64,000 nt of DNA, from NCBI RefSeq assembly GCF_018320785.1, contig NC_054886.1, positions 33,215,732-33,279,731 on the forward strand, given 5' to 3'. The stretch is from Cheilinus undulatus. Taxonomy: Eukaryota > Chordata > Actinopteri > Labriformes > Labridae. The notes beneath the pieces were generated by a model that did not search any database, was not told the DNA's origin, and saw only the letters and a program-made list of their open reading frames with translations. How positions within the stretch are numbered: the stretch's first letter is position 1; each line of letters begins with the position of its first letter. Positions 7,770-31,563 of this stretch are shown in pieces. Both the position numbers and the translations under genes were made by a program.

Positions 7770-10438
7770 ATGTCTCTACAGAAACAAGTGCCACTAAACG
7801 GTGAGTACTTTGGCTGATAGCTTTTCTCCGTTAATTCTTGGTTCTAGATGCTGTTAGATTGTTCTGTCTCACTGACTGGTATGTTTAAGTCAGCACAGTC
7901 CGAGGATCTGAACCCTATTGAGCTGTTGTGGGACCAGCTAATGTCAGCTTCACACCAGAGGACTTTGCTAAAACTCTGAGGTCATGTTCAACCTTATAGT
8001 CGGGGGACTTGGTCCGTTTTGGAACAGAAATGGCAACATTGTTGCACTTTCCTTTGGTCTGGTTCGCATTCACACCGCTCTCTTGATCAAGCCGACCAAA
8101 CCGTCTGAACACCTACAACCTTTGCCCGCTAGGGGCTCTGTCGCCACAAACAAATGGCTACCAAGTAGAAAAGAAGGCGTAAAAGAAGATGAAACTCCTT
8201 CCGCCGGTATTTTCTTCCACGTAAAAACAATGAAAACACAGAATTTACGCTGTCTTGGGGTTTCTGCTCTTGCATTTCGGCATTATGAGCAGCCGGCAAG
8301 GTGGTGAGCTGTCCAGCATGTCGTTCTTTACATGAGACAAAGAAATCAGCACTGACTACGACATGTTGCCATGGCTACACAGACGCGAAGCGAGGTACCA
8401 ACATGTATTTGAGCGGATTAAATCACATATAAATCCTTATATCATTACAGTTTATGCCTCATCCTGCTTTTGGTTCACAAGTTGGTCTACTTTGCATTCA
8501 CACCTCCAACGAACCACACCAAGGATCGTTTGGAAGTGGATCGAGACCCCCTGTTTACAAGCGGACCAGAGTCCGCTATTTTGGTCAGGACCAGAGTTCA
8601 AGTGAGCATTCACACCACTCGAAAAGAACCGGACTATCCGGAGAAACTGACCAGAGTTCGGTTAAAGCGGACCAAACAGCTCTGGTGTGAATGCGCCCTT
8701 AAAGACTCTCATATCTAGAGACAATTTGTCAGCAAGCTGTTGAGTTTTTAGTCTCAGACTAAGATTTTTCAAAGACTGGTGATCACTACCAACAAGACTA
8801 GAATATGACTCCTCTTGAGATTATTTCCCATTATGCATCTGGTGGAAATTCGCAACATTTTTTGAGCAGAGAGGAAAATGTAGAATGAGATGGAGATAGC
8901 ATATTATCATTATTATCCAGTCTTTTTAAATCATTTACATCAAGTAGAAATGAAAGGAAAGTTAAACAGCGAAGCAACTTTGTATGTTACTGTAACAACT
9001 GAGGAACTATCCTGGAAACACTTCAGAATAAAAGCACCATATGAAAACATGAGTACTCTCAACATATAAACTGATCAGGCTTCTACTTTGAAAATCCTCA
9101 GCAACGTTTCACTGTTCCTGTCATATCCACCTGGAATGACTTGACAGACAAAGAAGACAAACACAGGAGCAGAGATCTGCCTGCAGCTCTGAGCGGCTCT
9201 AGAACGATCTACGCTTACGTTCATATTTTGAAGCCTGAAGAGAATTTATGTGCTCACCCAAAACACCGGCTCCCATTGGTCATGGATGATGGTCACGTCA
9301 CTGAGAAACACAATTAGCATCCGACCAGACTTAAGACTTTATGGAAGAGTATTAGGGCCACTGAAAAAAAAAAAATTTTGAGACAAAATTTTTTTTTTCA
9401 ATTGTGAGAAAAAAGTCAGAATTCTGAGATTAAAGTCAGAATTCTGAGTTTAAAGTCAGAATTCTGAGATTAAAGTCAGAATCCTGAGAAAAAAGTCAGA
9501 ATTCTGAGAAAAAAATCAGAATCCTGAGAAAAAAGTCAGAATTCTGAGATTAAAGTCAGAATCCTGAGAAAAAAGTCAGAATTCTGAGAAAAAAGTCAGA
9601 ATTCTGAGAAAAAAGTCAGAATCCTGAGAAAAAAGTCAGAATTCTGAGATTAAAGTCAGAATCCTGAGAATAAAGTCAGAATCCTGAGAAAAAAGTCAGA
9701 ATTCTGAGTTTAAAGTCAGAATCCTAAGATAAAAGTCAGAATTCTGAGAAAAAAAAATCAGAATTCTGAGTTTAAAGTCAGAATTCTGAGATTAAAGTGA
9801 GAATTCTGAGTTTAAAGTCAGAATTCTGAGATTAAAGTGAGAATTCTGAGTTTAAAGTCAGAATTCTGAGAAAAAAATCAGAATTCTGAGAAAAAAACAT
9901 TTTTTTTTTCATTTGAAGAATAAAGTAAGAATTCTGCTTTTTTTTTCTCAGAATTCTGACTTTAAACTCAGAATTCTGACTTTAATCTCAGAATTCTGAC
10001 TTTTTTCTCACAATTGAAAAAAGAAAAAATTTGTCTCAAATTTTTTTTTTTCAGTGGCCCTAATACTCTTCAGTAAAACTTACAGAACAGCAAGGCTGAA
10101 AAAAAGACCACCTTAAAACGGCTAAAACTGAGTCTTATGACCACCTTAAAACTAACGACAGAGACAACAGGAGAGAGCTGCGACTTTAGCAAAACTGCAT
10201 GATTTTACTCCAACATTGGAATTTAGTCTGCAGCTATGAAATCAAAGGAAACGCTATTAGGTCTAAGGCCACCTTTATGTGCAGTTTGGTACATTTTGCA
10301 TAGATTTACTTTTGTGCATCAGACTCTGCCTTTCTTGCCATTTGCAAAGCTACAGGATGGGTAAAAAGCAGTACTACTGTTCTGTGGATCTGGCTCTGTT
10401 TCTTTGGTACGTTTAACCTTTTTCCACTAAAACCAAGA

Positions 10439-10480
<42 letters not shown>

Positions 10481-11973
10481 TTCATAGGTGATGCCTCACA
10501 GAGTGACATGGCACCTGACTCTGACTGGGATGTGTCCATGATATCGATCGGTGTCATCTCCTTGGCTGCTGTTATTCTGACAGTGGTTGTATACCGTTAT
10601 ATAGGTAAGTCACAAATTACTCTGAATAAAGTAATAATATTAGTGGCTTGGAAAAAAAAAAAAAAAAACCTTCAACTTTTCTTTTCACTAACAGTTATCA
10701 GTAGGTGTGTGTCATTTCTTTCAATAAAAAAAATGCCTTTTTTTCCCCAAACACTCTAGTGCAGCAGTGTTGTTTAAAATGAAAAATATCACAATAGAAA
10801 AGTTGTGATTGAAGTTCATCAGTGGTTTTTAGGTTGAAACTTATTCATAGACATAATCTCCAAAAAGCTGGGATGTTGTGTGGAACAAAAACTGAGGTTA
10901 TGTACAAATGCTTTTCAGCTAAATACAGCACATGTTGTAACACGCATCACAAAATAATGTTGGTTTATACTGCAGCACTGACCTAGGGGTCAAAGTCACA
11001 ATTTAAGCTGGTGTTCAGCCTTGCCCTTACTTAGGTAGATGTCTCCAGAATCTCTGCATACTTTATGGTGTTATTGACAGGGGAAATCTCTAAATTCCCC
11101 CCACACTGAGGAATATTGCTGATAAATTGTTGAACTACTTGTCAATACAATCTTTCACAAAGTGGATAACCTCAAGCCAAAGATTTTTTTTGTGACACAC
11201 AGTAAACAATAATAACAAAGACTTTCTGGCACAGACCTGTTCTCCCATCTCTTGGGAGACAGTTCCTGTCTGCAGAGACACTGAGGGCCACAGCACAGCC
11301 TCTCTGTCTCCCTTCATCCACATCCACTGTTTGTCAAACCATGATGTGACGACGGAACAGCCTGCCATTGGTTGTCACAGCCCATGTGACATCTGCTTTG
11401 GGAACATGATATGGTGGCTAATGCTAAGTTAGAGGAAGAGTGAACATATATTAAAAAAAGGAAAAGACATTCATTATCAGAGTGATTTATTTTTAAATGT
11501 CACGGAAAGACTGCAGTAGCAGGCTCGCTAGAAAAGGGCTACAAAAGCAAGGGAAGCAGCGTTAGAACTGCAACACAGAGGATAAAATGTAAGCATCTAT
11601 AGTGTGGTTCAAAGGTTGTTAAACTTTTTGTAACTTGTGCTTCTTCTTGGCTTATATGACGTTGGCCTCAGAGGGTTAAAAGGAGATTAAAAACTGTACT
11701 TTAGTCTAATTTATTTTGCACACAATGCCCTTTTCGGAATTTGTATTGGTGATTTTTTTAATGTTACATGTTTACTTCCCCAAAGAAAAGAAGAACACTA
11801 AACTTCGTAGAGAGGCCTCTCAACTGAGAGAGGAGGCAGCTGAACTGAGGAGGCAGAAAAATCAACTGGAAAAGGAGCTGGAGAAGGCCAGGGCTTGGAG
11901 TTTGCAGCGCTTTTTCCAGATCTTCATTAACGTTTCCATCAACATCAAGGCAGACTCAGTCTTTGGGAAGTAG
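7770..11973 (+). CDS. Gene A: small single-pass membrane protein with coiled coil, 111 aa
   Basis: Exons are 7770-7800 (plus 5' UTR from 7746), 10488-10604 and 11786-11973; all junctions are phase 1 and the frame closes at TAG. The noncoding first exon probably ends at 7274. The protein has a short acidic N-terminus (MSLQKQ..., then DASQSD, DSDWD), one hydrophobic segment at about residues 27-48, a basic flank (EKKNTKLRRE), and a heptad-rich helix (LREEAAELRRQKNQLEKELE) at about residues 55-85. It ends in a short hydrophobic tail. There is no signal peptide and no extracellular domain. Negative charge before and positive charge after the TM suggests N-out/C-in. Exon 2 follows an (AT)n-T tract at 10442-10482. 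The large introns hold transposons (8001-8705, 9342-10073). I recognise no named family. It is a member of the A/B/C/D series here. Confidence 0.65.
8001..8705. mobile_element. Nonautonomous TIR element (Harbinger/hAT-like) in intron of gene A
   Basis: The left side carries ttggtccgttttggaac and ggtctggttcgcattcacac. The right end carries gtccggttctttt-type sequence and gctctggtgtgaatgcgccc. The gcgcattcacaccagagc-type motif is a familiar terminus of fish nonautonomous DNA transposons. No transposase is present. The open frames within (8363-8718 in three frames) are repeat-derived. Confidence 0.5.
9342..10073. mobile_element. TIR element with internal 20-bp tandem array, TA target site
   Basis: A perfect 20-bp inverted repeat (gaagagtattagggccactg at 9344-9363, its complement at 10052-10071) bounds the element, and TA flanks both ends (9340-9341, 10074-10075). 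Inside, about 24 tandem units of roughly 20 bp (gtcagaattctgagaaaaaa and variants) run from about 9415 to 9895, followed by inverted units (ctcagaattctgacttt). Each unit contains the palindrome cagaattctg. A shorter relative with the same right end is at 16921-17181. Confidence 0.75.
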
Positions 11974-12105
11974 AATTCTTTCTCTCAATCAGTTAACCGC
12001 TGTATCACATCTTTGATCAGCCTGTTGTGGCATCCATGATTGTATAACAACCTCGTCTAAAAGCTGCTCAGTAGAGGGGAACATTATAGCCACTGAAACC
12101 TACAG

Positions 12106-12173
12106 CTCACAAATGCTGGGACGACTTATGGTGCCACCACCGCTGTCCTGTGGTCTGTGTCAGAAGATGGTAA
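12106..12173 (+). pseudogene. Orphan last exon of a C-type lectin downstream of gene A
   Basis: After an acceptor-like tacag, the sequence reads HKCWDDLWCHH...VCVRRW followed by TAA. It closely matches the last exon of the lectin gene (4769-4833), and the match continues through the 3' UTR to an AATAAA at 12448-12453. No other lectin exons are visible between gene A and this point. It is best read as a relic of a duplicated lectin gene, or as part of the 3' UTR of gene A. Confidence 0.65.
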
Positions 12174-12447
12174 TGCCTGCTGAAGAACTGTTAGAGCACC
12201 AACACTGGTGGATGTGTGTTTATACATCACTGGTTGTGCCATCATGTTCATCTGGACCCTGAGTGCTTCTTAATTCTCTCTTTATTTTCTAACGCTGTAA
12301 CGCTACACAAGGAACGATGTGACAAGTGAACCAACAGGAGCTGGATGGTCTCTGAGGCCTTGTGCCTGTAAGATCAGACTGAAAGTGAAGGATGATTCAT
12401 GCAAAATGTACTCTCTAGATTAAACTGTTCTCTTTCCTGTGAAAAAT

Positions 12448-12453
12448 AATAAA
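12448..12453 (+). terminator. Polyadenylation signal, probably used by gene A
   Basis: AATAAA in the duplicated lectin 3' UTR. It lies about 480 bases after the gene A stop codon on the same strand, so gene A transcripts may end here. Confidence 0.45.
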
Positions 12454-12666
12454 GCTGCAAGCATTGACAAAGTTTCATTCTCAGTTTTTAAATAAAGATA
12501 GCAAACAATCTGATTATCAAATGATTGTCTCATAGAGACAGAATAATGTTGCATTGTATGGACAAAAGTATTCAGACGCCTGACCATTCCACCAACTGTA
12601 AACACATTGTATTCAAATCCATGTACTTTAACATTGAGTTGGTCCCAGCGTTAATGTTGGCAGCTA

Positions 12667-13080
12667 TTTTGAATTTTAGTCTTAGTTTTAGTCTTTAAAT
12701 GAAACGTCTTTTAGTTTTAGTCACATTTTTACCCTTTTTGGGTTTTTAGTCTAGTTTAAGTCGACAACTCAAAATATTTTAGTCCATGAAAAGTCCTCGT
12801 ATTTTAGTTTTTACTTTTAGTCCAAGCATGTATGTTCTTGCCTAAATCCGGTACCAAATCATGGTAGTGTGTTCTCTGCCAAACCTGGGGTCCCTGCTTT
12901 CTACAGCTGAGAGGCAGAATAGATACAGATGTGTTGTACTTTGACAGATTTACCCACAGTGGAGAAATATCATAGATTTTGAATGTCTGACATAAAACTG
13001 CATTACATTGTAGTCTAGGTTTAGTCATCTTGACAAAAACTGACTTAGTTTTAGTCATCTTGACGCAAACTAACTTTAGC
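12667..13080. repeat. Low-complexity ttttagtc repeat
   Basis: Short irregular repeats of tttagtctta / gttttagtc occur at 12667-12830 and again at 13015-13078. They flank a unique-looking segment with no recognisable gene. This is probably the inside of an old transposon. Confidence 0.5.
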
Positions 13081-13685: not shown

Positions 13686-13687
13686 GG

Positions 13688-13781
13688 GTTAATGCCCGAC
13701 GAGGTGTCCAATTATCAGGGATTAATGGACGACGCGGAGTCCATTAATCCCTGATAATTGGACACCTCGAAGGGCATTAAC
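13688..13781. mobile_element. 94-bp near-perfect palindrome with TTAA ends (piggyBac-like MITE)
   Basis: Two 43-base arms (13688-13730 and 13739-13781) are complementary with two mismatches around an 8-base loop. Each arm begins or ends with TTAA followed by TGCCC (or its complement), which resembles a piggyBac-type target site and terminus. It would fold into a long hairpin. Confidence 0.6.
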
Positions 13782-14834: not shown

Positions 14835-16437
14835 CAGGGGTTCTCAACCTTTTCAGCCTGGGACCCCCAAAATAAAGGCGCCAGAGACCGGGGACCCCCA
14901 AAATAAAGGCACCAGAGACCAGGGACCCCTAAAATAAAGGCGCCAGAGACCGGGGACCCCCAAAATAAAGGCACCAGAGACCAGGGACCCCCAAAATAAA
15001 GGCGCCAGAGACCGGGGACCCCCAAAATAAAGGCACCAGAGACCGGGGACCCCCAAAATAAAGGCGCCAGAGACCGGGGACCCCCAAAATAAAGGCACCA
15101 GAGACCGGGGACCCCCAAAATAAAGGCGCCAGAGACCGGGGACCCCCAAAATAAAGGCGCCAGAGACCGGGGACCCCCAAAATAAAGGCGCCAGAGACCA
15201 GGGACCCCCAAAATAAAGGCACCAGAGACCGGAGACCCCCCAAATAAAGGCACCAGAGACCAGGGACCCCCAAAATAAAGGCACCAGAGACCGGAGACCC
15301 CCAAAATAAAGGCACCAGAGACCGGGGACCCCCAAAATAAAGGCACCAGAGACCGGGGACCCCCAAAATAAAGGCGCCAGAGACCAGGGACCCCTAAAAT
15401 AAAGGCGCCAGAGACCGGGGACCCCCACTGTACCTGAAGGTGGTTTAACAGCCATGAACATTCGAGAATAGTCATATGGAGACAAGGCCGTCCATGGGGG
15501 GGTAAAGGTGAGAACTTTCTGGGGCCCGGCCAAACTGGGGGACTGTGGAGGTCAGCAAAATTATGGTCCATTGTAAAGTTAAACTGTGATATGAATATTT
15601 TATATTTAACCTGAAAAATAACCACTCTTATCAAAGAAACATATGTGTTTTTAAAATCATTTGTGTATAGACTTCTTAAAAATCTAAATCTATTTTGTTA
15701 AAAAAAAATGAAATTAAAAAAAAAAAAAGATTTAAAATGGGTTCAAAATTGAAAAAAAAAAAAAGGTTAATAATGGCAAAAAAAAGGTGGTGAAGTTGGA
15801 TCTTAAAAGTAGCAGAGATGGGTTAGAAGTGGCATAAATTACAAAAGAATGGAAAAAAATGACCAAAAAAGAGGCAAAAATGAGTTACAGCAGCAAAAAT
15901 GGGCATAAATAGTGGTGAAAGGGAATGAAAACATGGCTGAAAAGGCTTTAAATTGGCAAAAGTGGGTGGAAATCTGGTGAGATGGGAAGAAAAATTGATA
16001 TAAACTGGCAAAATAGTGCTGACTGAGAAAGAAAAATAAGCAGATATTGGCAGAAATTGGTCAAACTGGAAAAAATGGGCATCTCAGATAGTGAAATGTG
16101 GTTAAAATTGGAAAAATTGGGCATAAAAAATGGTAAAAATGGGTTAATAGTGGCAAGAATGGGTCAAGAGAGACAACATTAGGCTTAAGTGCCATGAATG
16201 GGTTTAGAAGTGGCAAAAACAGGCGGAAAAAAGTGGTGGAAAGGATTTAAAATGGCAAAAATAAGTGTTCAATGGCAAAAATGTGTTAAAATTTGTGAAA
16301 AAAAAAAATTAAACTGACTAAAATTTGGCAAAAATGGTGTAAAGTGACAGCAGTGGAATTTAAGATATATTCCTAGTTTTTTTTTTTTTTTTTTTTTTTG
16401 TCTTAGTGTCTCACGACCTCCAGCTTGAGAACCACTG
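14835..16437. mobile_element. Nonautonomous hAT-like element hosting a minisatellite
   Basis: The left end is caggggttctcaaccttttc, and the right end (16420-16437) is cttgagaaccactg, its imperfect complement. The 8-base flanks atctacgt and acctgggt match at 5 of 8 positions, so a decayed target duplication is only suggestive. The interior is a 31-bp minisatellite followed by an A-rich degenerate array and a long T-run at 16378-16399. It sits between the promoter-like region and first coding exon of gene B. Confidence 0.55.
14863..15428. repeat. 31-bp minisatellite, about 18 copies
   Basis: The unit is ggcgccagagaccgggg + acccccaaaataaa. Eighteen copies of ccagagacc are spaced 31 bases apart, and copies alternate between ggcgcc and ggcacc variants. 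Because 31 is not a multiple of 3, all three minus-strand frames stay open across the array (up to 266 codons). These frames are artefacts. Confidence 0.9.
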
Positions 16438-16752
16438 ACCTGGGTTACACACTTCTGTTAATGATTTAAATATCAAACAGGTGCATCCCTTCCTGCTTCA
16501 TATAATTTATTGTCAGACTTTGGCCTCTAAAGTGAGCTGACTGGATGAACGACAGGTAAGCTCCTAGAATATAAACGCTACTGAATCTTTTTAAAGTTTA
16601 CCTATAAAGCATTCATCATTTCCTACTTTAAATCTGAACTCTCAGCTCTTTGTAGATGTAATGTGATTTTTATGTTCAGTGGAAAGCAGAAATCCTCTGT
16701 AGCTTAAAAAATCTTGTTTGTTCAACAGAATAATATTCTCCAGGACTCCATC

Positions 16753-19700
16753 ATGTCTCTACAGCGCGATGATTCACTGAGCTGTGAGTACTTCTGTTTC
16801 TGTTAAATCTCAGTTCTAGATGATTGTTCTGTCTCACTGACTGCCATGTTTAAGTCTTACACACTTAGTTACTGACTGTGGGACGGATCCAGAAGAATGA
16901 TTATACCACACTAAAAGCACTAAGAGTCAGAATTCTGAAAAAAAAGTCAGAATTCTGAGATTAAAGTCAGAATTCTGAGATTAAAGTCAGAATTCTGACT
17001 TTATTCTTTAAATGAAAAAAAAGTCTCAATTTTTTTTTCAGAATTCTGAGATTAAACTCAAAATTCTGACTTTAAACTCAGAATTCTGACTTTAATCACA
17101 GAATTCTGACTTTTTTCTTACAAGTGAAAAAAAAAAATTCGTCTCAAATTTTTTTTTTTCAGTGGCCCTTATACTCTTCCGTAGTTCAGAGACATGCAGA
17201 GAACATGAAATGATTTTAACATGACTGTTTGCTCAGAGACAGGATAACGATCAAAAACACAGGAACTACTGTATCACATAAAACATTATGAATATAAAAC
17301 TGATACGTAGGCTTGAGACCCAGTCCTTGGTCAAGAAAAGTCATTCTGTGTGGCAAAGGTCAAAGGTGGCAGAGGTCCTAAACAGGCACTTATTTAAAAA
17401 ATGCTCTTATTAAGATATTTTTGTTTAACCCTCCTGCCCTCCTCGGGCATTTTTGGTCATTTTCTCAACTTTTTTTTTTTTTTAATTTGTGATAATTTTG
17501 TCAGTTTTACAGCTTGTGGCATGAATTTTTACAGGAATTTTTCTTTCTAGTTAAATTTTTGAAATCCAACATGTTTGACTCTTCAATATCATTCAGACTC
17601 TCTCAATGAATTTTGTACCCTCTGGACACCTTCGAGGCAAAAATGTACATGTACAATGTTTTTTTCCCCCATAACATTAAACGTGGAAAGATGGGACTTT
17701 AGTGCTGATAAGAGTCTTGGATGGGTCAAAGATTACCAACAAAATTGATTTCATTGCATTTGTATTTTTTTTGTAGTGCCAGCTTTAACATTAGGGCACC
17801 CTCTGGACACCTTCGAGGCAAAAATGTAAAATCCAAGAATCTGGTGCATGGTCCTACAATGAGTAAATGGTTGAATCTGGTGGAATACGGTAAAAATGTC
17901 AAATTTCACTAGACTTCTTCACATTGAAATGCTGACATAAAGAATGCATGATTTTATACTGCAATGAGAGTGAGATTAAAAAACCTGGTTTTAATGGAAG
18001 TCAGTGGGGGCATTTTGCCTCGAAGATGTCAGGAGGGTATTTCTGACATTATGTAAAAAATATTAATGCAATCAAATCAATTTAGTTGCTAATCTTTGAC
18101 CCATCCAAGACTCTTGACACCCCCAAAGCCCCGTCTTTCTGCTATTTATCATATGAAAAATAATTCATTTTTTGTGTTTTTTAGTAAAAAACAAAATATT
18201 TCAAATTATCAAACTGGCATTAAAAGGGTTAAAATCTTGAAAATTATTGAATGTTTGGTAGTTTTGAGCAGGTCTGAAGTTGTTAAAGAGATTTTTTTTC
18301 TTTTAAAGAGTAGAAAAAAAATATTAATGCATGATGATTTAATGGCAATTTTTCTGTGAGTATACATTTTTGCCCCGAAGGTGTCCAGAGGGTTGTAAAT
18401 GTGAGGAGGGCACAAGGGTTAATATTTTAATTTAATTCAAATGTATGTGAAGTTTTAGGCTCAGTGAGATCAGCCTTATTTATCACAACCAGCCACAAAG
18501 CGGGCTATTGAGAGATTTTTGCTGAATATTCACAAAAACATGATGTAGAAAATGTGCGTTTTATCAGGAATGGACTGATAAATTCATGTTTAGCGTGAAC
18601 CATGTTCTTTAATAATGGCTGACAGGTGGTTTTCTGAAAAAATGGGTGGACTATAAAGTCATCTTGATGAAGCTGTTTTAGTCCCCATTGTTTTAGAGTT
18701 ATTGAAATAGCTGTTGGAAGATTATTTTAAAAAATAATTAAATACCACAACATAGCTTTTCCTCTGCACATGTTCTGAATTTGGTGATGCTCTGGGGGCC
18801 GAATGGAAGGATGTGGGGGGCCTGATGTGGCCCCTGGGCCACCAGTTGATGATCACTGCTGTGTGGTACTATAGTTTGTGTTGTAAAAATCAAAACTTCA
18901 TCAATTATTTGGAATGAAGGAGAGGGAGAGAAAGAAATAGCACTGAGTTAATCACCAGATTCATCTTGTTGCATCACTTTTCCTGACTGTAGCAAACAGT
19001 GCCGATCTTTAGGCATCAGTTCTTTTTGTATCGAGGATTATTTGCATGTAAAGGGAGCAACTCCGCACCAAATATTTAATATTCCCTCATTCACACGCGT
19101 GCAAACGGGACAGGGACACCCAGGGCACTGTTTGCTTGGCTGTTTGTGTAGATTTCACCCTTGTGCATGCTCTTTGCATCAGACAAGGCCTTTTTCACCA
19201 TTTGCAGAGCTACAGGATGTTCTTTTGTGGGCAGTTTTTGTCAGATTTGACTCTTTCCACTTAAAATAAGATTATTTATGTCTTTTTCTTCATAGATGAT
19301 GATGCCTTACCCAGTGAAATGCCACCTGATTCAGGTCAATTCAATTTTCCTATGTGTAAAAATTCCATGATGTTGATCGGTGGCATCGGCCTGTTCCTTG
19401 TTATTCTGGCAGTGGGTGTGGCATGCTTTTTGAGAAGTAAGTCCCAAATTATTTTGAAAACAGTCATTAAAATAGTGACTGAAAAAAATCAATACTATGA
19501 ATCAATAACATTACAACTATTTTAATTTCAACACTGCATGTGTCAAAGTTGAATCAACAGATTTTTGGAAACATTCTCTTTATTGTAGCAGAGTACTAAT
19601 GTTTCAGGTTAGAAATGTTAGAATGGAAAAGATGTGATTAAAATTAATTGCATGGTTAACAATTTCATGCAAAACTTAACTTTAAGGGCCTCATACATCC

Positions 19701-20305
19701 CCAGCCTTTTCTTGCCCCGTTCCAGCTTTTTTGGAATGTTAAAGGATTGAAATTTACAATATGTGTACTTTCAAAAAAAAGTTTAAAAAATCAGTTTGAA
19801 CCTCACTTTTCTTGTATTCCTGCTGTTTTCAGTTGAATATCATTTAAAAGAGATTTGTCAATAACTTTATTCTGTTTTCTTCACATTTTACACTATGCCC
19901 CAACGTTTTTGGAACTGAAGTATGAATTTTGCCTTAACGTTACATTTTCGCTCCCCCACAGGAAAGAAGAAAAAACAATTTCGTGGTGTTGTTACCACAC
20001 TTAGGGATGAACTGGAGAATCAGAAAATCCAGCTGAGCGGAGACCTGGAGAGAGTGACAGTGGAGAGAGAGGAGAACAAGAGGAGGCTGCAGACCGTGGA
20101 GACAGAAATAACGGAGAGAGAACAGATGTTTGAGAAGCCAGAGGAACTGCTGAGAGAGAAGGAACAACTTTTACGCTCTCAGTGGAACTTTGACAAGGAG
20201 AAAGAAATGTGTGAGAGGGAGATGCTTAAGAGAGAGAAACTGCTGGAGCCAATAGAAAACCAGCTTCGTAATTCTAGGAAAAAGAAAAATAACCAAGAGG
20301 AATAA
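16753..20305 (+). CDS. Gene B: single-pass membrane coiled-coil protein, 171 aa
   Basis: Exons are 16753-16783 (UTR part from 16729), 19296-19436 and 19962-20305, all joined in phase 1, closing at TAA. The N-terminus is short and acidic (MSLQRDDSLS...), with one TM at about residues 36-56 (SMMLIGGIGLFLVILAV...), then a strongly basic stretch (LRRKKKKQFR). A highly charged helix of about 105 residues follows, containing EENKRRLQTVE, PEELLREKE and EREMLKREKLLEPIENQL. The same coil occurs in gene D and, more divergent, in gene H. It has no signal peptide, Ig domain or B30.2. Charge balance predicts N-out/C-in with a cytoplasmic coil. A possible role is oligomerising adaptor or decoy for butyrophilin-like receptors; this is inference only. 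Confidence 0.7.
16921..17181. mobile_element. Partial copy of the cagaattctg TIR element in intron of gene B
   Basis: Units of gtcagaattctgag and inverted ctcagaattctgac lead to a right end (cagtggcccttatactcttc) nearly identical to that of the element at 9342-10073, followed by TA. The matching left terminus is not visible, so the copy is truncated. Confidence 0.6.
17425..18422. mobile_element. Nonautonomous piggyBac-like element
   Basis: TTAA is present at both boundaries (17425-17428 and 18419-18422). The ends are ccctcctgccctcctc and its imperfect complement gaggagggcacaaggg, matching at 14 of 16 positions. The motif ccctctggacaccttcgagg recurs inside (about 17619 and 17799), with its complement near 18376. 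No transposase is present. It sits in the large intron of gene B. Confidence 0.7.
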
Positions 20306-21480: not shown

Positions 21481-21508
21481 TATGTAACACATATTTATAC
21501 ATATAATA

Positions 21509-22038: not shown

Positions 22039-23279
22039 TATATATATGTATATATTCAAGTATTTCAAGTGTGTCGTCCTCCACTTGTCATGTTCTGTCT
22101 TGCACCACTAAATGATTAAAAAAAGGATCAATATGACCACAATATTACTAGCAGTGATTAAAATTCATTTTCAAACTAATAATTTATGTGATAAATAGAA
22201 GGACATGGAGATGACCAGAGAACAATACAGACATGACACCTAGATCACCCCACTGATGATTACAAGCTTATTTTTCTTTTTTTGTCCAAACAGTAAATCA
22301 GTCGATGAGTCGGTATTTTGAACTGAATTTGTTTTGCTATTTTGAAATGTTAAAGTAATGTGAAAAAAGTTTATAAATCAAAACTGTTTTGATTAATAGA
22401 CTTGGCATGTTATCATATTGTGACTATTATATTAATCATCATAGTTATGAAAGTAAGACAAGGAAAAAGTGTAACCACTGAAAGCACACCCTCTCTGGTT
22501 GTTATGGCAGACAGCAGGTAAGACACACGACTGTGCAGGCTTACTATCCAGGACAACACCAAGGCGCTCCTAAGTTGGGACACACATGTCTAAACTGGCT
22601 GAAAATGTCACGACTTGGTCTGCTCATCTCATCCTGCATCCCCCATAACCACCAACACCAGAGTCTAGACTCCATAAAAGGGGGTCTAGACCAGGGTCTG
22701 TTGGCCTCACTGCCCTTCCAAGAACAGGAAGACATTTTGATACAGTCTAATCACTGAAGACAATGCAGATTTAATTTTAATAAAAATTGGCAGAATAAAT
22801 ATCTGTTCACTTATTTAAGCCTCTGACTGAACTGAAGGTTCAGCTCTGCCCTCAGCAGTCCTTCTGTAGTCATGAAGAACTAAATAACAGGACTATCATT
22901 ACAGCTGAAGTTTAAACTTTAGCTGACTGGCCTCATGATCATCCGTGATATGGCTGCTTATTCCATCTATAACAGGTAAACACCTTCCTGCCTTGTTAAA
23001 CACTGATCATTTTATTGTCAGACTTTGGTTGCTAAAGTTTTTCACAAACTGAGGTGAGCTGACTGGACGGCACGACAGGTGAGCTGTGAGAAAAAAATAT
23101 ATTTACTAGTAATAATTAAAGTTTAATGATAAATCATTCATCATTTCCTACTGTGGATTTAAAATCTGAACACCTTCATAAATAGAAAAGTTTGTCTTTA
23201 TTTAAAGGAGAGCAGAATCCTTCTGTCCTACTCTTAAAAATCTTCTTTTTTATAGAATTATATTTGCCAGCGATCCAGC

Positions 23280-25147
23280 ATGTCTCAGCATTCAGATGAC
23301 CAGCTGAACCGTGAGTACTTTGTTGTTTCTTCCAGTTAAATCATTTTCTGGATGTGTTTTTGAGTCTGTTCCTCACTAACTGTATACTTCAGTCTTCTGT
23401 ACTTAGTAAATGACTGCTAATCTTGCAGTTTTAGAATTTTCCACTAAATCTAACATCATATATTTGTATTTTTTCCTCAGGTGATGCCTCACAAAGTGGC
23501 ACATTTTCTGACTGGAAGGTTTATGTGATTGTGATCAGTGTGGCTGCTGCTCTTCTGGCGGTGGCTCTTCTGTTTTGTTGTAGAAGTAAGTCACGAATCA
23601 TTCTTTATACCACATAAATGAGCGCAAACATATTCAAGATTAACTACCAATAATGATCAAATATATTGATCTTCAGTTTTAAATCATCTTTCAATCACAG
23701 CCCAACATGTCGTTCACTATTAAAAATACTGGTTCTCAAACAGTGCAGTGTCGTAACCTTGTTTATACTTAAATAAATGTACTGAAGATCTTTAAATTAT
23801 TTTTTTATATTTGATTAAACTAACTCTGAAATGCCAATTCCAAAAATGTTTGAACATCTGAAATATCACTCAGAAAACAGTGAATATGACACAAGGAGAA
23901 GATATTTGAAGTTTAAACTCATTAAAACAATTATTGGATCAGAAACGTACACACATTTAGTATTTGGTACCTCCAACCCGCTCCATAAATGTCTTCTACT
24001 GCATCACATCCTTTCTCTTCTGTATCTGGAAGCACCTGGAGAGACTAACTGTTGGAGAGCTGAATGTGGAATTCTTCCTGTTCTTACTTGATGTACAGCT
24101 TCAGTTGCTCAGCAGTGCAGGATGTTTATTGTTGCAATTTGTGCTTCAGAACGTGCAATTCATTTTTAGTAGGAGACAGTCTAGCCCTCCCCTTTTCCGT
24201 GAAGCCATGCTGTTGTAACTTGTGCAGAATATGGCTTTTTTTCAAATTGGCCTACTGCATACTCCTGCCAAACGCAGTATGCAGTATGACTGCCAGTTTG
24301 AAATTCCTCATTCCTGTCCAAAATGGTAAAACGTGGAGAGCTGACTGACAATGAAAGAGTCCGCATTAAAGCACTTCATGATGCTGGATGGTCTCTGAGA
24401 CAGATATGACAGGTGGTCTAATACATTTGTTAAGCGCTGTATATAAAAAAGATTGTGAAACATTAACCCTGTGGCTCTAAGCATCCTTTTTATCAGGACA
24501 ACCTGGGCTTTAGGAATATGTAAGCTGCAAGAACTTATGGGACTATAAAGGCAAAAGAAAAAGAAATGAATCAGAAATTTATACTCAAAGATTTTTATGT
24601 TTTAAACACAGTAAACATGTCAAACTAAGGTTCTTTCCCACAAACTTCTTCTACCATTTATTCAAGACCAAAAAGTGAAAAAAAAGAATCATTTTAAAAA
24701 GTCCTTTTGCTTTTTCAAAAATTGTTAAACTTTGAATAAGAAATATCTGTCTTTGTTGTATCCGACAACGCTGTCCTCAGGGGGCTAATTTTGACCCCCA
24801 GTTGTCCCACCTTTGTTGAACCATGTTAGAGTTTGTATTTCCAATTAAAAAAAAAAAAAAAAAAAGATGATCAGTCTGAACCTTCCTTGTCTTTGTGGTA
24901 TATTTATTGAATAATGGTTGAAAAGGATGTTCTAGTCCCTTTATTGTGTATTTATTCATATTTTACATTTTTGAACTGGAATTTTCAGATGATTTTTATG
25001 CTACTAATCTCTCTTTTTATTTTAGGACACAGGAACATGAAAACTCTTCTTAAAGACACAGCGATCACACTCAAACAAACCAGAAGAGCATTCATACAGT
25101 TGAGACAATCTAGAGACATTCTGATTTTATGTTTATGTCATGGTTAA
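23280..25147 (+). CDS. Gene C: truncated paralogue of gene D, 85 aa membrane protein
   Basis: Exons are 23280-23310, 23481-23585 and 25026-25147, joined in phase 1 and closing at TAA. The first two exons are almost identical to those of gene D: MSQHSDDQLN, then DASQSGTFSDWK and a TM at about residues 24-44. One visible amino-acid change is Phe in place of Cys in the TM. The third exon starts like gene D (RHRNMKTLL) but diverges after about 10 codons and stops early, so the coiled coil is gone. It could encode a short membrane peptide or be a decaying pseudogene. Intron 2 contains mariner-type fragments. A possible AATAAA is at 25983. Confidence 0.55.
24270..24443. mobile_element. Right-end fragment of a mariner-type element in intron of gene C
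   Basis: The fragment ends ggtggtctaatacatttgtt then aagcgctg, matching the terminus of the elements at 21509-22038 and 32854-33397. Its inner part (ggtaaaacgtggagagctga) looks like the 5' coding end of a Tc1/mariner transposase, heavily truncated. Confidence 0.55.
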
Positions 25148-26544
25148 TTTATTTGGCAGTCATTTACGTCTTTCCTGCTAAAGAGTGGCTGCAGGATCAA
25201 ACCAGACTCCTCAGTGCAGGTATAGAGGGGGAGGGTAGAGCTGAGGTGATAAGAAGGATCAGACACAGAGTGTGGTGGAATCACTGCATGGAGACCTCAG
25301 AGACGCCAGTGGTGAGGAAAACTTTAATTTAATCACACTAAACAATATAATAACTTTAATTTAGTGACTGAAAGGCTAAAATGATTTGTGTGCTGGTAAT
25401 TTAAGCCCTGCTATTTCAAATGTTAAACACTGGCATAGTGACACTGGTGATTTGAGGTCTGATTTATCTTAGGATTTATCTTTAATTCTATTTTGTTGTT
25501 TAAACTTAAAAAGGCAATCTGATTGAGATTGAGATCATTTGATCTGATTTGATTTAAATATTGCCCATTTATTTATTGATTGATTTGAAAATAGACCATT
25601 AAAACATTAACATTAAGTCAATGTATTTTAATCATTAAAGTGGTTACAATAGTTCACATGTATAATTTTGAGTTAAATTTATGAAGTAGTTTAAATATTT
25701 AAGCATAAAGAATGAACTTGAATGTACTGGTCAAATAATTTAAGTTTAAAAACTGTTCAAGACTTATCAGGGCAAGGTTAAAGTGATTGAAATAATTTAA
25801 AGAGTTAAGAAAGTCAACTGATAAATTTGCAGTTGATCCTTTGTTTAAAATGTATTTAAAATGGACATTAATAAGGCAATTGATTTGAATCCTTTTAATG
25901 ACAGCCTGATTCTTTATCTTTTTTTTTTTTTTTTTGAGATTATCAACCTGCTACTGCCACTGCTACTTCAACTGTTGTGACCAATAAATGGAGTAACGTG
26001 AAGCCAGCTGAGTTGTGTCCAGCGTTCTCTGTTGATCTCCAGGCCTCAAGCGAGTAGGGGCAGGCAATGATACCAGGAAAAAGGGAAAATTAACTCGACA
26101 CATACGGTGTTTATCTTTCCTGTGACATATTCTACTGGTGTGGAGACAGAAAGTTTCACTAAAAGTAGATCTCTAGAGAACAGCTTTATCAAACAAGCAC
26201 ATTTAAGCTTGTGGCCTTCCTCAGGGTTATCAAGAAACACACTGTAAACATACTTTATATGCATATTTGCCACAACGATGTACATATGGCTCTCCATTTA
26301 TCATTTTCCTGTCTAATATGGTCCACAGGCATACGCAGTGCACAGAAAAAATAGGCAAGACTTCGAATCTCTACAAACTCTGCTCCTGAGCTGGGTGTAT
26401 CCGCCACGCAAGACGTGATGCACATGCAGGCAGTCTGAAAGCCCTGACTTGTTAACATGCAATCAAACTGAAAATCCACGCACCCGTTACACTCCCAGTC
26501 TAAAATGGGCTTTATTCTAACAGTGCAAGGTGGATTGTCTAGGG

Positions 26545-27051
26545 CAGGGCTGTCCAATTTAGGGCCCACAGGCCAACTTTGGCCCACTAGTGATTATTTT
26601 TGGCCCGTCACCCATGTTAAAAGTTTTGATTTTTTAAAAATTATTATTATTTTCTGTCTGCCAGCATTCTAAATATTTCTTTGAATATTTATTTATTATT
26701 GCACTTCCTCTCCTGACCACAAATTAACATTGTGCTGCATGGAGGGTAGGGTGGCGATAAGAGAAAGTTTAAAAATAGTTGGGAACATGAGAACTTTTTT
26801 ACTGAAATTGATTTCAAGGCGGTATGCCTAATTAGTATTTGAACCATATGGATGTTCAGTTATTTTATGCTGTGTAACACAATAAAGAATAGTGTTATTC
26901 AAAATTACTTTGTATGAGTTATTATTTTGCACAGTTATGCTATAGGCATATTTAATTTCATGCACTGTAACATGGATGTTTAGTTTTGGTCCACGACCCT
27001 CCACCCCGATTCATTTTTTGCCCTTCACTGAAAAGAATTTGGGCGCCCCTG
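26545..27051. mobile_element. hAT element, 507 bp, with 8-bp target duplication
   Basis: The ends are cagggctgtccaattt and tttgggcgcccctg. It is flanked by gtctaggg (26537-26544) and gtccaggc (27052-27059). The duplicated block 2 has the empty site gattgtccagggcgttcatt at about 31678-31697, which confirms the boundaries. Confidence 0.8.
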
Positions 27052-28767
27052 GTCCAGGCCATTGATTCCCAACCTGTTTTTCCTGAGGGATCTCCCAACT
27101 TATATCTAAAAAAAGTTAAGCCTCCCCAGACCCATCAGTAAACATCCATTGTATTGTTTTCATTGATAGAATCCCAACATAATAGGTCCACTTATTTCTT
27201 AGGTTCTCACCAAAAGATCTTTGTATAAACTATCCGTTATTATGATGGCATACAAGGACCACCTTTGAAAAAATGAAGATAATCTTAACTTTTGAGGAAA
27301 ATCTCAACATTTTCAAATTTTGAATACTTCTAAACTTGTGGAAAAAAGGACATTTTCATTGTTAATGTATATGGACCAAAATTTGGCATATTTTAGGCCA
27401 TAACGTCCAGAATATCTGATTACATAGAGGAAAATCAGACCACATGAAGCTGTTTTCCTAGAGTTGAGAGCCTATTTCATTTTGGTTTTAACTCAAAATC
27501 TTCACATGATTGATATCATCTGTGCCTATAACAGGCATATCTTTAAACTGGGGTTATGTAAGCATTGTTTGGTTGGTCCTGTTAGGTTTCTCGTGATTTT
27601 TTGACTTTTCAATGCTGTAAATTTGTGATTTTAAAATCTTCACATTTTTGTGTATATAATGTCAAAATTTACAACTCATTAAACTTGGAAATATCTTTTT
27701 TTTCCCTTGTAATTATACAACTTTATAACCTTAATAAACTCAGAAGTTGTTTAACCGCACTTGAGAAATACTCGAGAAAAACTGAAATTGTCATGGGGGG
27801 CTAATAATTGTGTCCTCACATACATACACATATATAAGATCTTTACAAACCTATTGGTTTTACTTTTGTATTGTCCCTTTCCAGCTACATATTTTTGGCC
27901 CTGAAAATGAAAAAAAAAAAAAATTATGGGATGGTTTAAGTCTGAGGCTGACATGCTAGACTAGATAACTTCAAACACACTTTTAGATTTGTCCACTCAG
28001 TGATCTGAGGGTGTGCTCTGGTTCAAGTCTTCTCAGAGTTCATTTTTTTTTTCACAGTCACAGCTGTGGTGTCAGTGGGATTATTTTATTGCTATATATC
28101 CTGTCACAGCCTTATTGACCTTCAGAACCATTAAACAGGTTTTATAGTACAGTTCAGGATGGAATAGCCTCCTATAAAAAAAACAAAATACCCAGTGAGC
28201 AGAGAGGGTGTCAGCTAGACTGTGAGGTCTATAGTTTCTGTTCTCTGACCCAGAAGCAGACAAACGAGGAGAACAGTTCTAGGGTGGTTTATTGTTGGGA
28301 CTGAGGAGTAGCAATGAATGAATGAATTCTGGTGCTGTTGGCTTTCCATAGGATGAGTTGTGTTGCTTGGGGAGTCATCTTGATATTAGAAGTTACAGGA
28401 TGTGAACACAGTAAAAGGCTATTAAAGTCTCTGAAAGAAATACAAAGCAGAAAAATCTCTGAACTTAAAGTGAGCATTGCGGCCGACCAACAACAGCACA
28501 GAGTGGACGTAATGATGTGGTGATGAGGGGATGTGGGATGCAGGTGTGTGATCCAGGTGACCCAGTTAGGTCTCTGATCGCTGATTGTCAGGTGTGGCTC
28601 ACAAACACTCACAAGGACTGGGAGAGAGGACACAAGGGAAACATAGTTCGTCTGCTCTTTATGAGGCAGATTTAATCTTAACTTCTCAGTGTCGTTTAGC
28701 CGACTGCAGATCCTGACATCCAGTCTGATAAGACTGATTCAGAGAAGTTTCCTTTGCAGAGTAAGGT

Positions 28768-29051
28768 AGGCTACGTTCACACTGCAGTTAAAAGTGACCT
28801 GAGTCTGATTGTTGTGCTGACATGTGACCTGTATCTGATTTTGTTCAGACAGTGTGAACAGCACAAGTCACAATGAATCTGACCTTTTTGAATCAGATTC
28901 AGGCCACTTTCATATGTGGCTCTGAATCAGATACGTATCTGATCTTTTGGAAGCTAACTGCTGTGTGAACACACACACACAAAAAAAAAAAAAATCAGAT
29001 CTGAGAAAAGACCTGAATTGAGCATTAAGGCCTGCAGTGTGAACGTAGCCC
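28768..29051. mobile_element. Short MITE with ctacgttcacactgcag inverted ends
   Basis: The left end ggctacgttcacactgcag and the right end ctgcagtgtgaacgtagcc are exact complements about 284 bases apart. The interior is rich in gaatctgac/cagattc inverted motifs. It lies exactly at the junction between the two duplicated blocks. No target duplication is clear. Confidence 0.7.
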
Positions 29052-29411
29052 AAGTGTTGCAGAGAGACTGGTACTCACAAGCTCAATCTAAACAAAACTG
29101 ACAATGACCCACTTCTGTTTCATTTCCAAAAAGGGGCTTACTATCCAGGACACCAAGAAACTCCTATATTGGGAAGCACATGTCTAAACTGGCTAAAAAT
29201 GTCACGACTTAGTCTACTCGTCTGATCCTGATTCCCCATAACAACTAACACCAGAGTCTAGACTCCATAAAAGGGGGTCTAGACCAGGGTCTGTTGGCCT
29301 CACTGCCCTTCCCAGAACAGGAAAACATTTTGATACAGTCCAATCACTGAAGACACTGTAGATTTAATTTTAATAAAAATTAGCATAATAAATAGCTGTT
29401 CACTTATTTTA

Positions 29412-29934
29412 TGCCCCATTTACACGACAACGTTTTTGGGTGAAAACGCAAAAGTTTTGTAGTGTTTTGTCCATTTACACGGCTGCAGCATTTTGGTGTC
29501 TGAAAGTGGAACGCCTCCGTCTCCATGTAAACAGGGAAAACGGCACTTTCTGAAAACAAACATACGCACTGCGGCTGCAGTAAATATCCACCAGCGAGTA
29601 GGCTTATGATGCATGTTTTGGGACAGGAAACCCAAAACAAAGATGGCCGACACCAGTGTATTGTTCGTGCTCCTCACTCTTTTGAATTTAACTGCACTTC
29701 TCCAACAAAGCGTTGATTTACTTCACCATCACTTGGATCAGCGGAGACGTATTCCATGTCTGCACCAGAATTACACCACCGTCTATTGGCCTGGCATGTA
29801 CACCACATTGATTTTGGTGTTTCCCGCAGTCTCATGTGAACGGAGATAGATTTTAACACATTGCCGTCTGAATGGGGAGTTTTTTGGAAATGAAAACAGA
29901 AAACGAAGCCAAACATTGTCGTATAAACGGGGCA
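29412..29934. mobile_element. MITE with tgccccatttacacgacaac ends
   Basis: The left end tgccccatttacacgacaac and the right end (complement tgccccgtttatacgacaat) match at 21 of 24 positions over the full terminus. TA flanks both sides. Block 1 has the uninterrupted site cacttatttaagcctctgac at about 22810. The frames 29404-29849 on either strand come from this element. Confidence 0.7.
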
Positions 29935-30405
29935 TAAGCCTCTGACTGAACTGAAGGTTCAACTCTGCCTCAGCAGTCCTTCTGCAGTCATGATAAACTA
30001 TATAACAGGACCATCATTACAGCTGAAGTTTAAACTTTAGCTGACTCAACATCAACACAGCTGCTGCCTCATGATCATCCGTGATATGGCTGCTTATTAT
30101 AACAGGTGAACACCTTCCTGCCTTGTTTAAACACTGATCATTTTATTGTCAGACTTTGGTCGCTGAAATTTTTCACAAACTGAGGTGAGCTGACTGGACG
30201 GCACGACAGGTGAGCTGTTAGACTGAAATATATTTAATTGTTAAAGTTTAATGATAAATCATTCATCATTTCCTATTGTGGATTTAAAATCTGAACACCT
30301 TCATAAATAGAAAAGTTTGTCTTTATTTAAAGGAGAGCAGAATTCTTCTGTGCTTTCTCTTAAAAATCTTCTTTTTTATAGAATTATATTTGCCAGCGAT
30401 CCAGC

Positions 30406-31563
30406 ATGTCTCAGCATTCAGATGACCAGCTGAACCGTGAGTACTTTGTTGTTTCTTCCAGTTAAATAATTTTCTGGGTGTGTTTTTGTGTCTGTTCCTC
30501 ACTAACTGTATACTTCAGTCTTCTGTACTTAGTAAATGACTGCTAATCTTGCAGTTTTAGAATTTTCCACTAAATCTAACATCATATATTTGTATTTTTT
30601 CCTCAGGTGATGCCTCACAAAGTGGCACATTTTCTGACTGGAAGGTTTATGTGATTGTGATCAGTGTGGCTGCTGCTCTTCTGGCGGTGGCTCTTCTGTG
30701 TTGTTGTAGAAGTAAGTCACGAATCATTCTTTATACCACATAAATGAGCGCAAACATATTCAAGATTAACTACCAATAATGAGCCTTGCTCCTTATGTTT
30801 AGAGAGTCCTCCTGATTCTCTGATTTTTCTGATAATATGATGGACTGTAGATGATCAGATCTCTAAATTCCTTCAGCTACACTTTAAAAACACTGTTCAT
30901 GAACCGATGGACTATTCCCATCATAACTGAGCGTGTTTTTGATAACCAGTCATGATACGATCACCTGTTACAAATAAACTTACCTGCAGAATGTTCCAGG
31001 TGTTTTAGAGAATTCCACAATTTTCCCTCTCTTTTGGTGTCCCACCTTTTTTGAAACATGTTAGAGTTTGTATTTCCAATAAAACAAAGATGATCAGTCT
31101 GAACCTTCCATATCTTTGTGGTATATTTCATTGAATCGTGGTTGAAAAGGATGTTCTAGTTCTTTTATTGTGTATTTATTCATATTTTACATTTTTGAAC
31201 TGGAATTTTCAGATGATTTTTATGCTACTAATCTCTCTTTTTATTTTAGGACACAGGAACATGAAAACTCTTCTTAATGGCACAGCTGCCACACTCAATG
31301 CTGAAATAAGGCAGCTCAGTCAGAAGCTGGAGATCATGGAAGATGGGAGAGCAGAGAACAAGAGGAGGCTTCAGTCTGTGGAGATGGAGATAACAGAGAA
31401 AGAACGGATGTTTGAGAAGCCAGAGGAACTTCTTAGAGAAAAGGAAAACTTGTTAAAAGCTGAGTGGAGCTTTGACCGGGAGAAGGAAATTTGGGAACGG
31501 GAGATCCTGAACAGAGAGAAACTGCTGGAGCCAATAGAAAATCAGCTTTCTAGACAATGTTGA
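30406..31563 (+). CDS. Gene D: single-pass membrane coiled-coil protein, 149 aa
   Basis: Exons are 30406-30436 (UTR part from 30382), 30607-30711 and 31250-31563; phase 1 throughout, stop TGA. The noncoding first exon ends at 30184, with a TATA box at 29999-30005. The N-terminus is MSQHSDDQLN + DASQSGTFSDW; the TM is at about residues 24-44 and ends in a CCC cluster that could be palmitoylated. A coiled coil from about residue 60 to 145 follows, with AENKRRLQSVEMEITEKE, PEELLREKE and EREILNREKLLEPIENQL. It is the intact partner of gene C in the tandem duplication and is close to gene B over the coil. It has no signal peptide or ectodomain. The predicted topology is N-out/C-in. The function is unknown. 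Confidence 0.7.

What the first reader, a model, noticed from the sequence alone, without database searches (positions are those of the whole stretch)
7770..31563. Tandem family of ectodomain-less membrane coiled-coil proteins inside an immune-receptor cluster
Genes A, B, D (and truncated C) share an exon plan: 31 coding bases in the first exon, one TM exon, one coil exon, all phase 1. They encode 85-171 aa proteins with no signal peptide, Ig, lectin or B30.2 domain. The coil of B and D (EENKRRLQ..VE, PEELLREKE, EKLLEPIENQL) recurs in gene H on the other strand. It also vaguely resembles the coil of the butyrophilin-like gene G (LEKQRD, VEEEV). This suggests receptor genes that lost their ectodomains, or a separate family of partners/decoys that dimerise with butyrophilin-like tails.
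Basis: partly seen in the sequence, partly recalled or inferred. Interest (0 to 1): 0.85.

Follow-up and report, generated by a model that had tools for sequence, protein, structure and literature searches.

The report
Tail-only relatives of butyrophilin immune receptors
Beside a row of butyrophilin-type immune receptor genes, what looks like a fish chromosome carries a family of small genes encoding only a membrane anchor and an inner coil that resembles the receptors' own tails, which might pair with those receptors from inside the cell; no transcript or protein has been seen yet.

Summary
A, B, C and D are spliced genes of 111, 171, 85 and 149 aa with the reported plan: 31-base start exon, TM exon, coil exon, all phase 1. 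Gene H has a similar plan, but its window copy carries an in-frame TAG at the end of the TM exon. In the held genome, recognisable coil exons number 10 (a lower bound), all within 241 kb of one contig. A shared 5'UTR exon ties A-D to two of the eight opposite-strand H copies. No Ig, lectin or B30.2 domain was found. Resemblance to the butyrophilin-like gene G is probably homology: profile-profile, part of the DNA comparisons and predicted helix-break-helix agree, though some members score no better than shuffles. A G-type coil lies 6-12.4 kb 3' of 7 of 8 H. The B/D coil shows purifying selection (dN/dS 0.41). Best reading: N-out, tail-only butyrophilin paralogues. Inferred, untested: their coils pair with each other and with G tails, tuning receptor dimerisation or trafficking. 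Gene A shares its 3'UTR with three neighbouring lectin loci. Ligand-binding decoys are unlikely, as there is no ectodomain. No RNA evidence was available.

The parts
7235..7294 (+). gene A, 5'UTR exon (start at the shared motif; true start unknown)
   Evidence: motif and exon shared with B, C, D, H6, H8; donor GT read
7746..7800 (+). gene A, start exon (ATG at 7770; 31 coding bases)
   Evidence: 74% DNA match to gene B
10488..10604 (+). gene A, TM exon
   Evidence: matches D and B
11786..11973 (+). gene A, short coil exon with stop
   Evidence: 5' part matches B coil exon, E 9.9e-12
12094..12487 (+). gene A 3'UTR shared with lectin loci, with AATAAA
   Evidence: 88-93% identical to stretches 0.2-2.4 kb downstream of the third CTLD exon of 3 upstream lectin genes; AATAAA 474 and 517 bases after the stop
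16509..16555 (+). gene B, 5'UTR exon (from motif)
16753..16783 (+). gene B, start exon, 31 coding bases
19296..19436 (+). gene B, TM exon
19962..20305 (+). gene B, coil exon
   Evidence: 83.7% to D, 77.6% to H1 over about 200 bases
23014..23078 (+). gene C, 5'UTR exon (from motif)
23280..23310 (+). gene C, start exon, 31 coding bases
   Evidence: part of 93% tandem duplicate of D
23481..23585 (+). gene C, TM exon
25026..25147 (+). gene C, coil exon cut off where the duplication with D ends (about 25074)
30145..30209 (+). gene D, 5'UTR exon (from motif)
30406..30436 (+). gene D, start exon, 31 coding bases
30607..30711 (+). gene D, TM exon (TM ends in CCC)
31250..31563 (+). gene D, coil exon
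55390..55402 (-). gene H (H1), putative start exon, 13 bases
   Evidence: equivalent stretch in H2 and H3
55008..55139 (-). gene H (H1), TM exon with in-frame TAG near its end (shared with H2, absent in H3)
53717..54063 (-). gene H (H1), coil exon
45586..50322 (-). gene G (G1): butyrophilin-like V exon 50322-49978, C exon 47389-47102, TM exon 46998-46876, coil/tail exon about 46548-45586; first exon not identified
   Evidence: nearest solved chains BTN2A1 and BTN3A

Best explanation
A, B, C, D and H belong to one tandem family of tail-only butyrophilin paralogues: single-pass membrane proteins with an N-terminal outside part of about 15-40 residues (about 70 in H5), one TM helix and a cytosolic helix-break-helix coil probably homologous to the juxtamembrane tail of the neighbouring butyrophilin-like gene G. 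Shown: exon plan, shared exons across the family, a 5'UTR exon shared by A-D, H6 and H8, no ectodomain exon found, single-cluster distribution, purifying selection on the B/D coil. Supported but not for every member: coil homology to G. Inferred from charges: N-out/C-in topology. Inferred mechanism: the coils form dimers with each other and with the coils of G proteins at the inner membrane face, setting which G dimers form or reach the surface, much as the juxtamembrane regions of mammalian BTN3A chains control homo- versus heteromers. C is a truncated copy; A ends in a 3'UTR shared with lectin loci; H1 and H2 may be decaying copies.
For: Architecture and splice sites. 5'UTR exon in A, B, C, D, H6, H8. 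Exon matches across the family. Coil H-G: hhalign 90.6%, E 1.3e-6. H-family HMM gives G6, G2, G3 19.8, 19.6, 19.3 bits (E 0.006-0.008 for a PDB-sized search), against 18.6 for the best of 177,635 PDB sequences. G-family HMM gives H3 25.5 bits against a PDB best of 16.4. Coil-exon DNA matches at E<=0.01 in 11 of 30 family-G gene pairs, best H3-G5 E 4.4e-8 and H6-G3 E 5.8e-7. AlphaFold2 break after helix 1 at 9 (H) and 8 (G) residues past the shared SVE. A G-type coil on the same strand 6-12.4 kb 3' of 7 of 8 H. Both coil types were found only in this cluster. dN/dS B-D 0.41. Positive-inside rule for A, B, D, H5, H6. BTN3A juxtamembrane regions control homo- and heteromers, which differ in trafficking (PMC10665462, abstract and passages).
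Against: No transcript, protein or binding data; no dimer modelled. G1 (9.2) and G5 (5.9) score weakly with the H-family HMM; 1 of 2000 heptad shuffles of G5 beat G5; in the reverse search at least 5 shuffles of D and 2 of H5 beat the real sequence, and H6 and B exceed their best shuffle by under 1 bit. A and D coils gave no DNA match to any of 5 G genes, B only to G5; H3-G5 and H6-G5 also match in a second register; TM exons do not match G. H7 has no G-type coil or Ig-C exon detected beside it, and A-D lie 14 kb or more from G1. The H-G pairing may be mere co-duplication. G coils drift fast (dN/dS 0.72-0.85 in 5 of 6 pairs among G1-G4, G3-G4 having no usable dS) while the H1-H3 coil is homogenised, which does not look like tight co-evolution. 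H1 and H2 have a TAG before the coil. H1-H5 lack the shared 5'UTR motif. H6-H8 0.74 (0.38-1.35) and H1-H3 1.51 (0.25-2.58) do not exclude neutrality.
Confidence: 0.42

Rival explanations
1. Tail-only scaffold independent of G: the coils homo-oligomerise at the membrane and bind cytoskeleton or cytosolic partners, like the chicken 'zipper protein', a BG tail that controls actin-myosin interaction.
For: Precedent for a tail acting on its own in the butyrophilin/BG family (PMC4046983 and PMC8813856, passages). The H1-H4 coils stay alike while G coils diverge. A-D have no G gene beside them.
Against: Coil likeness to G and the repeated H-G neighbourhood are unexplained by it. No actin-binding signature was tested.
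Confidence: 0.29
2. Non-functional by-products of tandem duplication: fragments of receptor genes kept open by recent duplication and gene conversion.
For: C truncated, H1/H2 with TAG, H2 coil duplicated inside and split into two frames, G5 with a V exon in two frames and no C or TM found. The homogenised H1-H3 coil looks like gene conversion.
Against: B-D coil dN/dS 0.41 with upper bound 0.70; A, B, D, H3, H6 intact with splice sites; 5'UTR exon kept in 6 genes.
Confidence: 0.18
3. Incomplete models: unseen exons add Ig or lectin ectodomains.
For: No cDNA was available; the H5 start is unresolved and it has an extra acidic exon; exons under 60 codons outside ORF list limits were not scanned with Pfam.
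Against: No other exon-like segment shared between A, B, D and H6. No Pfam domain in 20 ORFs from introns or upstream DNA. Start exons shared by A-D with ATG in frame.
Confidence: 0.06
4. Signalling adaptors of the LAT/TRAP kind beside the FcR-like genes.
For: Short outside part, one TM, juxtamembrane cysteines in D.
Against: No tyrosine in the tails of B and D; no ITIM-like motif in any member scanned; only lone YxxL/I tetrads in A, H6 (two) and H8.
Confidence: 0.05

Closest known systems
Butyrophilins (BTN2A1/BTN3A), via neighbouring gene G
   Same: G aligns with BTN2A1 and BTN3A from Ig-V through TM into the start of the juxtamembrane coil; the family's coil is probably homologous to G's coil.
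   Different: The family has no Ig V or C exon, no B30.2 and no evident signal peptide.
BTN3A2-type partner chains without B30.2 (recalled, no call)
   Same: A shorter paralogue that could act through juxtamembrane heteromers (role of the juxtamembrane region: PMC10665462, abstract and passages).
   Different: BTN3A2 keeps its Ig ectodomain; these proteins do not.
Chicken BG proteins and the 'zipper protein'
   Same: Tandem family of butyrophilin kin with a cytosolic coil tail; the tail can act alone (PMC4046983, passages).
   Different: BG keeps a V domain and its tail is built from many 21-base exons (PMC4046983, passages); here one exon codes the coil.
Transmembrane adaptor proteins (LAT, NTAL, LIME; PMC2803307, passages)
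   Same: Short outside part, one TM, long cytosolic tail.
   Different: No tyrosine signalling motifs in B and D; the tail is a coil.

Membership tests
butyrophilin family | IgV and IgC ectodomain | tested here: not met
   No Pfam Ig hit in A, B, D, H3, H5, H6 or in 20 ORFs from introns or upstream DNA. Gene G meets it.
butyrophilin family | juxtamembrane coil of the family after the TM | tested here: inconclusive
   Profile-profile E 1.3e-6, 11 of 30 DNA pairs and matching helix break for; D, H5 and G5 not above shuffles, A and D without DNA match to G. Same exon order, TM then coil.
butyrophilin family | B30.2 domain (absent in some members) | tested here: not met
   No hit in the family; none in the G1 coil/tail ORF.
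chicken BG | coil encoded by many 21-base exons | tested here: not met
   One coil exon of 188-350 bases in A, B, D, H1, H3; definition from PMC4046983 (passages).
transmembrane adaptor proteins (TRAP) | cytosolic tyrosine signalling motifs | tested here: not met
   0 Tyr in B and D tails; no ITIM-like motif; lone YxxL/I tetrads in A, H6, H8.
transmembrane adaptor proteins (TRAP) | short ectodomain, single TM, juxtamembrane palmitoylation cysteines (CXXC in some) | tested here: inconclusive
   Architecture fits; D has CCC, B one Cys, A none; palmitoylation not testable.
type II C-type lectin receptors | CTLD exons after TM and stalk, N-in topology | tested here: not met
   No CTLD exon inside the genes; positive charges on the C side of the TM in A, B, D.

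The most novel reading that the evidence does not exclude
A dedicated family of ectodomain-less butyrophilin partners, amplified with the receptors at about one H-type gene per receptor, whose conserved coils plug into the variable tails of butyrophilin-like receptors and decide from inside the cell which receptor pairs form. It would be an internal counterpart to ligand-binding diversity that I did not find described for butyrophilins in the searches.
Probability: 0.24. Interest if true: 0.8.

Novelty: new variant of a known kind. Interest (0 to 1): 0.57.

Why it matters
How butyrophilins choose partners is an active question in gamma-delta T cell biology, and the juxtamembrane region is a known control point for human BTN3A (PMC10665462). 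If these genes are translated, the genome provides free-standing coil tails at the membrane next to coil-tailed butyrophilin-like receptors, which makes tail-driven pairing testable apart from the ectodomains. It also points to a class of small genes without recognisable domains that automatic annotation would easily miss or misname.

Tried and rejected
Lectin origin: A's 3'UTR matches stretches downstream of three upstream lectin genes, which raised the idea that A is a lectin gene that lost its CTLD. Rejected: start exon, TM exon and coil start match B, charges point N-out, and no TM or coil exon of the family was found at the lectin loci.

Adaptor idea (DAP12/LAT-like): rejected for lack of tyrosine motifs.

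Pfam hits below cut-off (Lectin_N for B, E 7.6e-4; DUF1664 for H6, E 5.3e-6, 26.9 bits against a cut-off of 34.6; others weaker) were taken as coil noise. Foldseek on the H coil model gave generic helical hairpins, 0 of 699 matches at E<=0.001 (50 shown). Viral contigs: 93 pattern matches, none confirmed as a relative. Rfam on the window: 0 matches. A seven-row coil tree groups B, D, H6 and H8 with moderate support (84/91), one of four inner branches starred; too weak to use. PMC5043582 (passages) reports no sign of selection for variation in the chicken BG1 tail; not used.

Papers: searches (0 papers; 20 of 20 listed; 15 of 23; 8 of 8; 3 of 3) returned no listing whose title or start of abstract describes such a family in fish; (15 of 28) was on mammalian coils. 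I saw passages of six papers; the rest were listings only. Subscription papers are not held.
Full report
WHERE. That it is a ray-finned fish is my inference; no call names it. I fetched 200 kb around it, giving a continuous 264 kb with 100 unknown bases. Coordinates below are window coordinates; values above 64,000 or negative lie outside.

THE GENES. A 5'UTR exon precedes them. A 17-base motif from it, with up to 3 mismatches, occurs 6 times on both strands of the 264 kb: at A, B, C, D and H6, plus one place (16,046) at no family gene. A further site is in the separate locus L006, at H8. It was not found at H1-H5 or at G1-G6. About 0.05 hits per 60 kb per strand were seen in 20 shuffles. H6's 5'UTR exon would need a GC donor. 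C and D are a 93% tandem duplicate; C's coil exon leaves the duplication at about 25,074 and ends early.

FAMILY EXTENT. Searching the genome with the D coil gives 10 coil exons (E<=0.001) and with the H6 coil 11 matches (E<=0.01; the extra is a second piece of H2), all on contig 22 between 33.235 and 33.477 Mb; the tool calls such counts lower bounds. They are B and D on the plus strand and H1-H8 on the minus strand. A and C are recognised by their other exons. H3 has an intact plan (13-base start exon, TM exon, coil exon; 164 aa). H6 starts within its TM exon (165 aa). H5 has an extra acidic exon and an unresolved start. H1, the window's gene H, and H2 carry TAG near the end of the TM exon; H2 also has an internally duplicated coil split into two frames; H4's TM exon was not found, a run of unknown bases lying upstream of its coil. 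H7 was seen only as a match position.

NO ECTODOMAIN. Six family proteins have no Pfam match above cut-off. Twenty ORFs of 60 aa or more, from introns of A, B, C and H1 and upstream DNA of H1, have none at E<=0.01. In pairwise comparison of B-D, A-B, A-D and H6 with A, B, D, similar stretches fall on the named exons and flanking intron or 3' sequence, apart from one repeat and one 45-base match shared by A and B, and promoter-side DNA shared by A and D.

LINK TO BUTYROPHILIN-LIKE GENE G. G has V-set and BTN3A2-like Ig-C domains and its nearest solved relatives are BTN2A1 and BTN3A, aligned through TM into the start of the tail. Family and G coils align over 80 columns (hhalign probability 90.6%, E 1.3e-6 for this one comparison). 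With an HMM of 5 family coils, G6, G2, G3, G1 and G5 score 19.8, 19.6, 19.3, 9.2 and 5.9 bits. The best of 177,635 PDB sequences scored 18.6, so the margin is about 1 bit (my run had filters off). The best of 2000 heptad-register shuffles of each G coil scored 8.8, 4.3, 3.9, 4.3 and 15.6 in that order, so G5 is not above its shuffles. In reverse, H3, H6, B, H5 and D score 25.5, 19.9, 13.1, 11.5 and 9.2, against shuffle maxima of 14.3, 19.7, 12.3, 13.2 and 14.0; H5 and D are not above theirs, H6 and B barely; the best PDB sequence scored 16.4. DNA comparison of 6 family genes with 5 G genes finds coil-exon matches at E<=0.01 in 11 of 30 pairs: H6 with G1, G2, G3, G5 and G6, H3 with G1 and G5, H5 with G1, G3 and G5, B with G5 (E 0.008 to 4e-8). 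A and D have none. H3-G5 and H6-G5 match in a second register too, and coil codon bias can inflate such E-values. Matches of B, D and H5 to G6 outside the coil are not at family exons. No TM exon matched a G TM exon. AlphaFold2, on alignments of 5 sequences, predicts two helices in each: H coil 2-54 and 60-107, pLDDT 92, pTM 0.77; G coil 13-85 and 90-151, pLDDT 78, pTM 0.47. The break lies 9 and 8 residues past the start of the shared SVE. I take homology as probable, best supported through H3 and H6, with B, D and A linked to them by their own exons.

NEIGHBOURHOOD. H and G recur as neighbours on the minus strand, with seven FcR-like exon pairs in both orientations among them. The G-type coil was found 7 times, only in this cluster, each 6-12.4 kb 3' of an H coil: H1-H6 and H8, 7 of 8. 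No G-type coil or Ig-C exon was detected beside H7. G5 has a V exon in two frames and no C or TM exon found. Of 13 Ig-C matches, 6 are in the cluster, 4 at 33.51-33.57 Mb and 3 at 32.3-32.8 Mb of the same contig; the last seven have no G-type or family coil match nearby. The family is thus found only where coil-tailed G genes are.

EVOLUTION. Coil dN/dS (pairwise counting, own script; pairs not independent) for B-D is 0.41 (0.22-0.70), B-H3 0.52 (0.29-0.95), D-H3 0.47 (0.24-0.85), H6-B 0.50 (0.27-0.81), H6-D 0.34 (0.19-0.65), H8-H3 0.57 (0.31-0.95). H6-H8 0.74 (0.38-1.35), H6-H3 0.74 (0.44-1.13), H1-H3 1.51 (0.25-2.58) and H1-H4 1.26 (0.15-2.45) do not exclude 1. H5-H3 0.2 rests on saturated sites; H3-H4 and H5-H6 gave no value. 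The H1 and H3 coil exons are 98% identical, with mostly lower identity around them, as gene conversion would leave. The Ig-C exon of G1 and G3 is identical with a tract running into the introns. Among G1-G4 the Ig-C exon differs by at most 1 base, while the coil has dN/dS of 0.72-0.85 and the V exon 0.25-0.43 in the 5 of 6 pairs with usable dS.

TOPOLOGY AND MOTIFS. Positive charges within 15 residues before and after the TM: A 0/6, B 1/7, D 2/4, H5 0/7, H6 0/2, so N-out. H3 is ambiguous (4/4). B and D tails have no tyrosine; no ITIM-like motif in any member; lone YxxL/I tetrads in A, H6 (two) and H8; D has three cysteines at the inner membrane edge.

MECHANISM. Most likely: membrane-anchored coils that dimerise among themselves and with G tails. 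In humans, interactions between juxtamembrane regions control BTN3A homo- or heteromer formation, and these differ in trafficking (PMC10665462, abstract and passages). Anatomy is shown; homology to G is probable; topology is inferred from charges; dimerisation and effect on G are not tested. The main rival is a free-standing scaffold, for which the chicken zipper protein is a precedent (PMC4046983, passages).

GENE A. Its 3'UTR from 12,094 is 93, 90 and 88% identical to stretches 0.2-2.4 kb downstream of the third CTLD exon of three of the four plus-strand lectin genes upstream. That these are the lectins' 3'UTRs, and that A took its end from them, is inferred from position; the lectins' last exon was not located.

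LITERATURE. Full-text searches listed no paper whose title or start of abstract describes such a family. A 2026 survey of butyrophilins across jawed vertebrates (PMC12841164, passages only) mentions teleost butyrophilins but no tail-only genes in the passages I saw.

Noticed in passing
window 47086-47445 (-) and copies at 76692, 118707, 154157: The Ig-C exon of four butyrophilin-like genes is identical or one base apart, for G1-G3 with the tract reaching into introns, while V and coil exons differ: recent gene conversion centred on one exon.
   Followed up: partly
window 45586-46030 (-): The G1 tail ends in 20 GTQHEP hexapeptides (count) before its stop; the G2-G6 tails read lack this array.
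   Followed up: no
window 12094-12487 and 4764-5147: Gene A and three lectin loci share a 3' stretch at 88-93% identity, suggesting a swapped gene end.
   Followed up: yes
88525-89039 (-) in window numbering, outside the window: H2 coil exon has an internal duplication and its two parts lie in different frames; H2 shares the TM-exon TAG with H1.
   Followed up: partly
window 52484-52825 (+): Reverse-transcriptase fragment (Pfam RVT_1, E 5.9e-10), a transposable-element remnant between H1 and G1.
   Followed up: no
window 14860-15430 and 9400-10010: Long tandem arrays seen by eye between genes A and B and in A's first intron (GGGGACCCCCAAAATAAAGGC-like units; AAAGTCAGAATTCTGAG-like units).
   Followed up: no
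window 41583-42578 (-) and 57872-59884 (+): Two FcR-like genes with two Ig exons each in opposite orientation flank the G1-H1 pair; seven such exon pairs lie in the 264 kb examined.
   Followed up: partly
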